Both the position numbers and the translations under genes were made by a program. From IMG/VR virus record IMGVR_UViG_3300027743_000001, positions 22,543 through 86,542 of that record: a DNA stretch of 64,000 bases, one strand, 5' to 3'. Position 1 is the first letter of the stretch. Every line of letters starts with the position of its first letter. This DNA is from a virus. Below are positions 33,503-35,813 of the stretch, one piece after another. The notes under the pieces were generated by a model. It was not told the DNA's origin, ran no database searches, and worked only from the letters and a program-made list of their open reading frames with translations.

Positions 33503-33756
33503 TGCAAGACCCCGTCCACCTGTGGAATCGCCTCTCGCAGGAAGACATCGCGTGTCAACTGGAGCACCTCGCCCGGCAGGCTGAGGCTGTCTGGGAGGAG
33601 GCTGTCAACCAGGAAGGCATGGCTCCCACCATCCTCGCTGCAATGCGGGTACGTGCGCACGAGACCAGGCAGGCTGCGCTGATCGCTGCCGGCCGGAACA
33701 ACATCATGTTGGACGTGATCCAGAGGACGGTGACCCGGGAGTGGGAAAAGGCATGA
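33499..33756 (+). CDS. Small helical protein, paralogue of the 33111 gene
   Basis: 85 residues from ATG 33499 in the stop overlap. Helical throughout; paralogous to the 33111 product. It directly precedes and overlaps the pilin-like gene at 33753, so it could be cotranscribed with it. Confidence 0.7.
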   Translation: MMQDPVHLWNRLSQEDIACQLEHLARQAEAVWEEAVNQEGMAPTILAAMRVRAHETRQAALIAAGRNNIMLDVIQRTVTREWEKA

Positions 33757-35201
33757 GGCGCCGGCTGGCTGACGATAGTGGCGCTTCTCTCATTATGGCG
33801 CTGATCTTCATCGTGGTCGTGGCCGTGGTGATGGGCGCTGTGCTTACCCTCACAGACGCGAACCTGCGCAACACCACAGCTCTGAGGGACCGAGCCGGCA
33901 AGGACTACGGCGCTGATGGCGCTGCCAAGATCGCGATCAAGCAGCTGGAGAATGACCACTACCTTGGAGGCGACTGCCCCGCGCTGAACGTCCAGGCTGG
34001 CTACGCGGTCCAGTGTGTGGCCGATGAGGGCAACTCCACCGTGGGGGACATCAACTCTGTCAACCGGCAGGCAACCGCGCTGCTCGCAATGGCTCCGGCC
34101 GGACAGGGCCTCTACTTCAACATTCAGGGCAACCCAGCTACACAGTCGATCAAGGTCAAGGGTGGGCTGTTCTCGCACTCTGACTTCGTGGTTGATCACG
34201 GCTGGCTGGATTCTCTCGGCCCGGTGACCGCGCGGGGTGACTGCCTGCTGCTGAACGACACGGCCAGGCTCACGTCTTCTAAGCAGGACTGCAAGATCAT
34301 GACGGCTGTCAACCGGCTGGGCAAGGATCCGAACTATTCCGTTCCGGCCGTGACCGGGGATGCCACTGTGCAGCCATGCACCAAGACCAAGAAGACCCCC
34401 TACGTGGTGACGCCCGGCATTCTCGACGCTGCCGACATGATCGTGCTGAACAAGCTGACCTCAAACCACGACGACTGCAAGGATGTGGTGATCTGGCTCA
34501 AACCAGGTGATTACCAGTTCAACGCGGTGTGGGAGATCAAGTCTGGCAAGGTGATTGGTGGAGGCAGCGGCGCGCCGCCGGACACTGTGGACCCCGAGAA
34601 GCAGGGATACTGCCCCGCTCCCATCCCGCTGGAGGGCCAGGAAGATACGTGGACCCCGCCGGCTGCCGACCTCGGAGTGACGATCACGTTCGGCCCATCC
34701 GCGCAGCTGTCAATGGTGCCTACGCCGACCAAGGTCACTCCCTCCATGGAGCTGTGCGGCGACTACGAGAAGAACAAGCCGCCGATCGTGTTCTATGGCA
34801 GGGCCGCTGCGCCAGATACTCTGGCCATCAAGACAGACGCTAACGCCGACTTCCGGCTGTACGTCCAGGGAACCACGTACCTGCCAACATCTGTGATTGA
34901 CCTTCACCTTAAGAAGGACGTGCTTCCGTTCTTCCGCTCTGGCATCACGTCCTACCGGTTCCGTGTAGACGGGGTTGGCAACGCCAGCTCGGTCACGCCG
35001 CTGGTGGAGACTCCGGACGCTGAGGGCACCAGCAACTCCGGCATGGTGTGGCTGGAGGTCCGTAGCACGGATGACAACACCGTTCGGCTGCGGGCCAAGG
35101 TGTACTTCTACATGGCCAAGCAGACCGAGGATGAGCCGCCGGTTCCGATTGACCCGCCCCAGTACGCCAGCAAGGTTGTCAGCTGGGCCACGCAACGATA
35201 G
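33753..35201 (+). CDS. Large exported protein with PilX/prepilin-like N-terminus
   Basis: 482 residues from ATG 33753. The N-terminus reads MRRRLADDSG followed by ASLIMALIFIVVVAVVMGAVL, then a polar helix (TALRDRAGKDYGADGAA). This is the layout of minor pilin/PilX-like proteins: short basic leader, Gly before the cleavage point, hydrophobic helix, then a helical spine. A Glu at +5 is absent, so processing by a prepilin peptidase is uncertain. The remaining ~420 residues are beta-rich with several Cys pairs, a possible tip or adhesin domain. A clear type IV pilin gene follows after a terminator. Confidence 0.7.
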   Translation: MRRRLADDSGASLIMALIFIVVVAVVMGAVLTLTDANLRNTTALRDRAGKDYGADGAAKIAIKQLENDHYLGGDCPALNVQAGYAVQCVADEGNSTVGDINSVNRQATALLAMAPAGQGLYFNIQGNPATQSIKVKGGLFSHSDFVVDHGWLDSLGPVTARGDCLLLNDTARLTSSKQDCKIMTAVNRLGKDPNYSVPAVTGDATVQPCTKTKKTPYVVTPGILDAADMIVLNKLTSNHDDCKDVVIWLKPGDYQFNAVWEIKSGKVIGGGSGAPPDTVDPEKQGYCPAPIPLEGQEDTWTPPAADLGVTITFGPSAQLSMVPTPTKVTPSMELCGDYEKNKPPIVFYGRAAAPDTLAIKTDANADFRLYVQGTTYLPTSVIDLHLKKDVLPFFRSGITSYRFRVDGVGNASSVTPLVETPDAEGTSNSGMVWLEVRSTDDNTVRLRAKVYFYMAKQTEDEPPVPIDPPQYASKVVSWATQR

Positions 35202-35210
35202 GCACACAGC

Positions 35211-35249
35211 AAGAAGCCCCCGGGTATTACTTCCCCGGGGGCTTCTTTG
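35211..35249 (+). terminator. Intrinsic terminator after the PilX-like gene
   Basis: A 14-bp perfect stem AAGAAGCCCCCGGG (35211-35224) with its complement (35234-35247) and an 8-nt loop, ending in a TTCTTT tract. Confidence 0.85.
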
Positions 35250-35337
35250 GTGTTTGCTCAACTTCACCACGCTGGGAGGATCCATGCCACCTCCTGCTCC
35301 CATCACTGTAGCTTGCCAGGTATCTAGTTTGCAAGTG

Positions 35338-35366
35338 TTGACATCCTGCGTACTACCGGCTAGGTT
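35338..35366 (+). promoter_or_regulatory. Promoter of the type IV pilin gene
   Basis: TTGACA (35338-35343), 17-nt spacer, TAGGTT (35361-35366). It lies 45 nt upstream of the start, with a normal Shine-Dalgarno (TGGAG). Confidence 0.7.
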
Positions 35367-35411
35367 GGTCCTACACGCGGTGCTTGACCGCCTCACACCA
35401 CTGGAGTATTC

Positions 35412-35759
35412 ATGCGTACCCGTCTCATGAAGCGCTACGCCGACCTTCGCAAGAAGGAAGACGGCTTCACCCTGATCGAGCTGCTGATCGTGATCGTCAT
35501 CCTCGGCGTGCTGGCCGGCGTCGTCGTCTTCGCCGTCTCCGGCATCAACAACAAGGGCGAGGTCGCAGCCTGCAAGGCCGAGGCTAAGACCATTGAGGTT
35601 GCCTCCGAGGCTTACTATGCGCAGAAGGGCACCTACGCCGCTGCCGTCTTTGGCGCTGCCCCCATCAACAGCCTTGAGGCTGCCGGCCTGCTTCACGCCG
35701 ACACGCTAGACCCCAAGATCACGTACACCGCTGGAGTCGTGACCAACACCTGCGGATAA
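35412..35759 (+). CDS. Type IV pilin / pseudopilin-like protein
   Basis: 115 residues; the second Met (residue 6) is an alternative start. The prepilin signature is unmistakable: basic leader ending KKEDG, cleavage expected before FTLIELLIVIVILGVLAG, with the +5 Glu. A pilin-like helix (ACKAEAKTIEVASEAYYAQKG) and a short beta region with one more Cys at the C-terminus follow, as in GspG or type IVa major pilins but shorter. Own promoter and terminator. Pilins are exported and assembled by host-encoded machinery; no ATPase or peptidase is in this window. Role in the phage unknown. Confidence 0.85.
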   Translation: MRTRLMKRYADLRKKEDGFTLIELLIVIVILGVLAGVVVFAVSGINNKGEVAACKAEAKTIEVASEAYYAQKGTYAAAVFGAAPINSLEAAGLLHADTLDPKITYTAGVVTNTCG

Positions 35760-35769
35760 GCAACAAGCA

Positions 35770-35804
35770 AAGGGCCGGACACCCGGGTGGGGTGTCCGGC
35801 CCTT
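35770..35804. terminator. Intrinsic terminator between convergent pilin and lipoprotein genes
   Basis: AAGGGCCGGACACC pairs with GGTGTCCGGCCCTT around a 7-nt loop; the stem itself provides T and A tracts on both strands, so it may work in both directions. Confidence 0.8.
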
Positions 35805-35813
35805 CTGTGTTGC

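What the first reader, a model, noticed from the sequence alone, without database searches (positions are those of the whole stretch)
33753..35759. Phage-encoded type IV pilin and PilX-like protein
The 115-residue product at 35412 has a textbook prepilin signature (KKEDG, then FTLIELLIVIVILGVLAG with +5 Glu). The adjacent 482-residue product has a prepilin-like hydrophobic N-terminus and a large Cys-containing outer domain, like a minor pilin with an adhesin tip. No pilus ATPase or peptidase is in the window, so host Tad or type II/IV machinery would have to process them. Pilins in a phage could alter host adhesion or receptors, mediate superinfection exclusion, or be a novel virion appendage. 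I know of no described phage system of this kind.
Basis: partly seen in the sequence, partly recalled or inferred. Interest (0 to 1): 0.82.

Follow-up and report, generated by a model that had tools for sequence, protein, structure and literature searches.

The report
Phage-borne type IV pilus subunit pair
A complete virus of actinobacteria carries two genes for parts of the bacterial type IV pilus, the shaft subunit and a large probable tip protein, but none of the assembly machinery, so it probably builds its own subunits into its host's hair-like pili and so changes the cell surface.

Summary
The 35412-35759 product is a textbook type IV major pilin (Pfam N_methyl 1.4e-9; 45-52% identical to most major pilins of actinobacterial pilus clusters). 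The 33753-35201 product matches no Pfam or PHROG family. By profile it is a homologue (6.9e-43) of a large pilin-like protein encoded in the same actinobacterial clusters, beside the pilin, PilT, PilB, PilC and prepilin peptidase. So both genes come from one kind of host pilus system. The 86.5-kb circular phage has no PilB, PilT, PilC, peptidase or tyrosine integrase. A collinear relative (G001) keeps both genes in swapped order. Between the two phages the large gene evolves like the major capsid gene (omega 0.16 and 0.15; dS 0.41 and 0.42), so it is under selection. The pilin's promoter and helix are conserved, but its exposed head has diverged strongly (dS 1.4), and the relative's head is nearer to bacterial heads than to its sister phage's. 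Best explanation: a module whose subunits are processed and assembled by the host's machinery and remodel its pilus. The consequence (superinfection exclusion, adhesion or other) is inferred. Twenty-one other capsid-related contigs lack the pair. No described phage system of this kind was found in the papers searched.

The parts
33753..35201 (+). Large pilin-like (probable tip) protein, 482 aa: basic N-terminus, hydrophobic pilin helix without Glu5, large beta-rich exposed domain; GTG start at 33741 also possible; start overlaps the stop of the upstream ORF
   Evidence: homologous to actinobacterial T4P-cluster proteins, E 6.9e-43; omega 0.16 between two phages; AF2 long helix 9-67 then beta-solenoid-like domain and C-terminal sheet
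35213..35245 (+). Terminator-like hairpin between the two genes (12-bp perfect stem GAAGCCCCCGGG/CCCGGGGGCTTC, then TTT); a similar hairpin precedes the pilin in the relative
   Evidence: read from sequence, weaker form in scan, alignment with relative
35338..35366 (+). Pilin promoter TTGACA-N17-TAGGTT, conserved in the relative
   Evidence: one of 11 TTGACA-N17-TANNNT sites in the window against 0.12 expected
35412..35759 (+). Type IV major pilin, 115 aa: 18-residue leader ending KKEDG, FTLIE with Glu5, conserved Cys54/Cys114
   Evidence: AF2 pLDDT 76, long helix plus two short strands
35769..35805 (.). Strong hairpin (16 pairs) closing the pilin unit, terminator-like on both strands

Best explanation
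A two-gene host-derived module encodes the shaft subunit (major pilin) and a large, probably tip-located, pilin-like protein of an actinobacterial type IV pilus. The phage supplies subunits only. During infection (or as a lysogen or episome) they are inserted in the membrane, the pilin leader is cut and methylated by the host prepilin peptidase, and both are polymerised by the host PilB/PilC machinery. The infected cell then displays phage-specified or hybrid pili. The most likely benefit is changing what binds the pilus: blocking or diverting competing pilus-dependent phages, or changing adhesion and aggregation of infected cells. Shown: gene identity, bacterial kinship, absence of machinery, selection, conserved promoter-like sequence, divergence of the head. 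Inferred: head replacement by recombination, processing, assembly, tip location, benefit.
For: Pilin identity; PDB relatives Geobacter geopilin, MshA, GspG. The large protein's homologues lie in the same clusters as the major pilin, PilT, PilB and PilC in 11 of 13 bacterial loci examined (PilB/PilC not seen in the 7,990-bp L031; PilT not in L038), with a prepilin peptidase about 1-2 kb further on in several. The phage pair thus mirrors one cognate pair; in L031, L038, L041 and L114 the bacterial order is large protein then pilin, adjacent, as in the window. The phage protein nests among Actinomycetota homologues in a tree. Complete circular genome without machinery. Large gene omega 0.16, dS 0.41, the same as capsid 0.15, 0.42, and at 87.6% nucleotide identity it is the most conserved stretch of an otherwise 67-84% accessory region. 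Pilin head dS 1.43 against 0.22 for its helix (p 6e-5) and against capsid (p 3e-5); G001 head 57% and 54% identical to two bacterial pilins but 47% to the sister phage. Own promoter-like sequence with flanking hairpins. Capsid relatives are actinophages.
Against: No host is assigned, and only about 2-3% of sampled Actinomycetota genomes carry a recognisable homologue of the large protein, so it is not shown that this phage's host has the matching pilus. Only two phages carry the pair; 21 other capsid-related contigs do not, though most are fragments. Head replacement rests on about 60 codons. Tip location rests on architecture and a non-significant structural match to ComZ. Nothing tests processing or assembly.
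Confidence: 0.6

Rival explanations
1. Poison subunits: the phage pilin and short tip protein enter the host machinery but block elongation or retraction, removing the pilus as a receptor for other phages or stopping motility (same route, opposite outcome).
For: Phage proteins that shut down T4P are known (Pf4 pVII, an inhibitor of the PilB ATPase, Gp21; reviewed in PMC11436027). The phage large protein lacks the roughly 200-aa insert of most bacterial homologues.
Against: Insert-less bacterial homologues exist (L040, L041, L218), so the short form need not be a phage truncation. The cysteines, Glu5 and helix are intact. A poison subunit does not need a large conserved exposed domain under capsid-like constraint, nor exchange of the head for bacterial-like heads.
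Confidence: 0.15
2. DNA-uptake pilus: the pair acts like Thermus ComZ-PilA2, a tip DNA receptor, so that infected cells import DNA for nucleotides or recombination.
For: Architecture (pilin helix, beta-solenoid-like region, C-terminal sheet) resembles ComZ, a proposed tip DNA receptor that binds its cognate pilin PilA2 (PMC6561018); ComZ 6qvi appears in the Foldseek list, rank 9. The bacterial cluster type includes PilT.
Against: The Foldseek match is not significant (E 0.56, prob 0.10), there is no sequence match to any PDB chain, and no com genes or DNA-binding residues were tested.
Confidence: 0.12
3. Virion appendage: the pilin pair forms a fibre on the phage particle.
For: Both are exported, filament-forming protein types; no direct evidence.
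Against: Type IV pilins are extracted from the cell membrane by an ATPase machine that the phage lacks. The genes lie in the accessory region on the opposite strand to the structural genes (capsid, portal, terminase, tail fibre all on minus). No viral structural match.
Confidence: 0.04
4. Passenger host DNA: captured bacterial genes without function in the phage.
For: Lineage-restricted presence.
Against: omega 0.16 over 482 codons with dS equal to that of the capsid gene; conserved promoter-like sequence; kept in both relatives despite rearrangement.
Confidence: 0.05

Closest known systems
Actinomycetota type IV pilus clusters (e.g. Nocardioides halotolerans L033, Amycolatopsis L039, Actinokineospora L032)
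   Same: Major pilin (mostly 45-52% identity overall) and the large pilin-like protein are both encoded there, with PilT, PilB, PilC, other minor pilins and prepilin peptidase.
   Different: The phage has only the two subunits, the pilin under its own promoter; its large protein is 482 aa without the ~200-aa insert of most bacterial forms and sits on a long branch (1.64).
PHROG 3433 'pilin' (moron, auxiliary and host takeover) and related PHROGs 13280, 10597, 27437
   Same: Pilin-like proteins already catalogued in phages; the window pilin matches them at 6e-7 to 4e-8.
   Different: Matches cover mainly the shared N-terminal helix. No described function was found, and no large partner pilin is catalogued. 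110 IMG/VR loci encode a prepilin-like N-terminus, but no match to the large partner was found in 24 such records.
Thermus thermophilus ComZ-PilA2 (proposed tip DNA receptor)
   Same: Large pilin-like protein with a beta-solenoid in a pilin framework, lacking standard pilin motifs, paired with a small cognate pilin (PMC6561018).
   Different: No detectable sequence similarity and non-significant fold match; DNA binding not tested.
Phage proteins that act on host T4P (Tip, Aqs1, Pf4 pVII, Gp21)
   Same: Phage genes that alter the host type IV pilus, often linked to superinfection exclusion (PMC11436027; the names Tip and Aqs1 are from my own knowledge).
   Different: Those inhibit or down-regulate the machinery or pilin; none is a pilin subunit pair.
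Claimed VPI phage encoding the toxin-coregulated pilus (Karaolis 1999, cited in PMC3244431)
   Same: A claim of a phage that encodes a type IV pilus.
   Different: That claim concerns a whole pathogenicity island and, from my own knowledge, was not reproduced; here a tailed actinophage carries subunits only.

Membership tests
Type IV (class III) pilin | Short basic leader ending in G with GFTLIE motif and Glu5 | tested here: met
   KKEDG|FTLIE; Pfam N_methyl 1.4e-9 and NCBIfam TIGR02532 over curated cut-offs
Type IV (class III) pilin | Hydrophobic helix then globular head with a cysteine pair | tested here: met
   AF2 helix 21-72 and two strands; Cys54 and Cys114 invariant in 20 pilins; the disulphide itself is inferred
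Type IV (class III) pilin | Cleaved by prepilin peptidase and polymerised into filaments | not testable with these tools
   No peptidase or PilB/PilC in the phage; host machinery would be needed
Large pilin-like protein of actinobacterial T4P clusters | Full-length homology and genomic link to T4P genes | tested here: met
   hmmsearch 6.9e-43; N-terminus, middle region and C-terminus all align; bacterial homologues lie in T4P clusters
PilX (Pfam PilX_N) family | Match to the Pfam PilX model | tested here: not met
   No Pfam match at E <= 1
GspK (T2SS tip pseudopilin) | Match above the curated cut-off of NCBIfam GspK | tested here: not met
   19.6 bits against 130, N-terminal 60 residues only
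ComZ-type beta-solenoid tip pilin | Solenoid inserted in a pilin fold | tested here: inconclusive
   AF2 model suggests it (mean pLDDT 73); ComZ match E 0.56
Phage moron | Extra gene with own promoter and terminator, variable among relatives | tested here: met
   Met at sequence level for the pilin: hairpins on both sides, conserved promoter-like sequence, position swapped between relatives, absent from distant relatives; transcription not measured

The most novel reading that the evidence does not exclude
A virus that specifies the composition of its host's type IV pilus: a phage-encoded shaft and tip subunit pair replaces or decorates the host filament, with the exposed pilin head swapped among alleles while the tip protein is held as tightly as the capsid, so that infected cells show a phage-chosen surface filament.
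Probability: 0.4. Interest if true: 0.8.

Novelty: new variant of a known kind. Interest (0 to 1): 0.62.

Why it matters
Phages are known to switch type IV pili off; a phage that supplies its own pilus subunits would be a constructive takeover of the same organelle. Type IV pili of actinobacteria are little studied, and this gives a natural minimal pair (shaft plus probable tip) to test which subunits define pilus function. The head-swap pattern gives a direct evolutionary prediction about receptor diversification or host matching.

Tried and rejected
tblastn of both proteins in INPHARED and of the large one in PLSDB: no match. A generic pilin query also found nothing, so low-complexity masking weakens the negative for the pilin. 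First genome scan with leader-biased patterns found nothing; a helix-centred query worked. L005 (the second viral hit) is an unrelated contig with a planctomycete-like pseudopilin. PDB sequence search with the large-protein profile: nothing. Viral fold library: nothing. Further viral scans with bacterial large proteins: nothing new. Assembly artefact rejected: a second collinear contig from another metagenome carries the same genes.

Full report
**Observation.** The small one is a type IV prepilin above curated cut-offs (Pfam N_methyl 37.5 bits, E 1.4e-9; NCBIfam TIGR02532), with an 18-residue leader ending KKEDG, Glu5, and two cysteines invariant across 20 aligned pilins. Solved relatives are Geobacter geopilin, MshA and GspG. 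The large one has no Pfam or PHROG match.

**Setting.** The window is bases 22543-86542 of an 86,542-bp IMG/VR record. Its first and last 28 bases are identical, which fits a circular assembly. It encodes capsid, portal/protease, terminase and collagen-type tail fibres, a tape-measure-like protein and a probable glycoside-hydrolase lysin (my reading). The capsid is 37-40% identical to Arthrobacter, Gordonia and Microbacterium phages and to Actinomycetia phage DSL-LC01, so this is an actinophage. No tyrosine integrase was found, so lifestyle is unknown. No PilB, PilT, PilC or prepilin peptidase was found anywhere in it.

**A relative with the same pair.** IMGVR_UViG_3300027743_000025 (86,173 bp; G001) is collinear over the whole genome, circularly permuted. 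It carries both genes but in the other order: pilin then large protein, whereas the window has large protein then pilin. The unit that moved includes a terminator-like hairpin, a conserved promoter-like TTGACA-N17-TAGGTT and the pilin. The window has 11 TTGACA-N17-TANNNT sites against 0.12 expected, so the pilin appears to use the phage's usual promoter type. This is moron architecture.

**Selection.** Between the two phages the large gene has dS 0.41 and omega 0.16, the capsid gene dS 0.42 and omega 0.15. At the nucleotide level the large gene (87.6%) stands out from its accessory neighbours (67-84%). It is not decaying, and its dS gives no sign of a separate recent arrival in either phage. 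The pilin is mosaic: the first 46 residues are 93.5% identical with dS 0.22, the rest 43% with dS 1.43; the difference in synonymous change is significant against its own helix (p 6e-5), the large gene and the capsid (both p 3e-5). The head of the G001 pilin is closer to bacterial pilin heads (57% to L034, 54% to L033) than to its sister phage's (47%) over about 60 columns. I read this as replacement of the exposed head by recombination, but it rests on few sites.

**Where the genes come from.** The best genome matches of the pilin are Actinomycetota (Frankiales MAG, Actinokineospora, Nocardioides, Kribbella, Amycolatopsis). Profile search of those same loci with the two phage large proteins finds a homologue in the same cluster, E 6.9e-43 in Amycolatopsis, 1.2e-33 in Actinokineospora. 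The Nocardioides cluster reads pilin, PilT-type ATPase, PilB (with MshEN), PilC, two N_methyl minor pilins, large protein, and a prepilin peptidase follows 1-2 kb on in several genomes. Of 13 loci checked, 11 hold all of pilin, large protein, PilT, PilB and PilC; L031 (short contig) shows only the PilT-type ATPase and L038 lacks the PilT match. In L031, L038, L041 and L114 the large protein directly precedes the pilin, as in the window. A tree puts the two phage proteins inside the actinobacterial family with full support for their own clade, next to another insert-less homologue with weak support (82/63), on a stem of 1.64 changes per site. The family is patchy: 11 of 397 genomes sampled across the phylum, 9 of 395 in the class.

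**Architecture of the large protein.** The N-terminus is a pilin-type helix without Glu5. AlphaFold2 (mean pLDDT 73) gives a helix 9-67, many short strands that look like a beta-solenoid, and a C-terminal sheet. Foldseek has no match at E <= 0.001; the best are beta-solenoid ice-binding proteins (E 3.4e-3) and, further down and not significant, ComZ (E 0.56). ComZ is a proposed tip DNA receptor with a solenoid in a pilin frame that binds its partner PilA2 (PMC6561018). I take tip location as likely by analogy only. Most bacterial homologues have an extra ~200-aa insert; some lack it, so the short form need not be a phage truncation.

**Mechanism.** The phage supplies subunits and borrows the machine. 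The pair is cognate, intact at every testable feature, driven by a phage-type promoter and selected. The host peptidase and PilB/PilC would process and assemble them, giving phage-specified or hybrid pili. Why is open: receptor change and exclusion of pilus-dependent phages, adhesion, or DNA uptake. A conserved partner plus a replaced head fits a surface whose exposed face must differ among phages or match different hosts. Poison-subunit, DNA-uptake, virion-appendage and passenger rivals are weighed in their sections.

**Novelty.** Pilin-like genes in phages are catalogued (PHROG 3433; 110 confirmed IMG/VR loci in one scan). Phage inhibitors of T4P are well known (PMC11436027). A phage module of shaft pilin plus large cognate pilin, without machinery, under selection, was not found in the papers searched nor in other viral contigs. 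The searches cover open-licence papers only, and the contig scans need short exact matches, so more distant cases could be missed. I rate it a new variant of a known kind.

Noticed in passing
window:31837-32367 (+) and L002:6790-7323 (+): Two secreted small zincin-like metalloproteases (HELGHAxGIxxHN; weak Matrixin/Peptidase_M10 matches, E 0.003-0.006) in one phage; the first lies near the pilin module and is conserved in G001 (80% identity, omega 0.25).
   Followed up: partly
window:39671-40240 (+): Twin-arginine/lipoprotein-type secreted protein with an AMIN-like domain (Pfam PF24837, 2.1e-16), another envelope protein in the accessory region.
   Followed up: no
window:35814-36539 (-): Predicted lipoprotein convergent with the pilin, present in G001 but fast evolving (60% identity, dS about 1.0 against 0.42 for capsid).
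   Followed up: partly
window, e.g. 3313, 28994, 32805, 36556, 45929, 57543: Family of TTGACA-N17-TANNNT promoter-like sites (11 against 0.12 expected), most with an internal GTTGA or GTTGG repeat 3 bases after the -35 box, perhaps a phage regulator site; the pilin's own site lacks it.
   Followed up: partly
window:8745-16937 (-): 2730-aa protein with N-terminal peptidoglycan-binding domain and a 2'-5' RNA ligase-like domain (PF13563, 7e-7), possibly an injected multidomain protein or anti-defence enzyme.
   Followed up: no
IMG/VR loci L134-L212: Scores of unrelated viral contigs up to 250 kb encode prepilin-like proteins; phage-borne pilins look commoner than described and deserve a survey.
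   Followed up: partly
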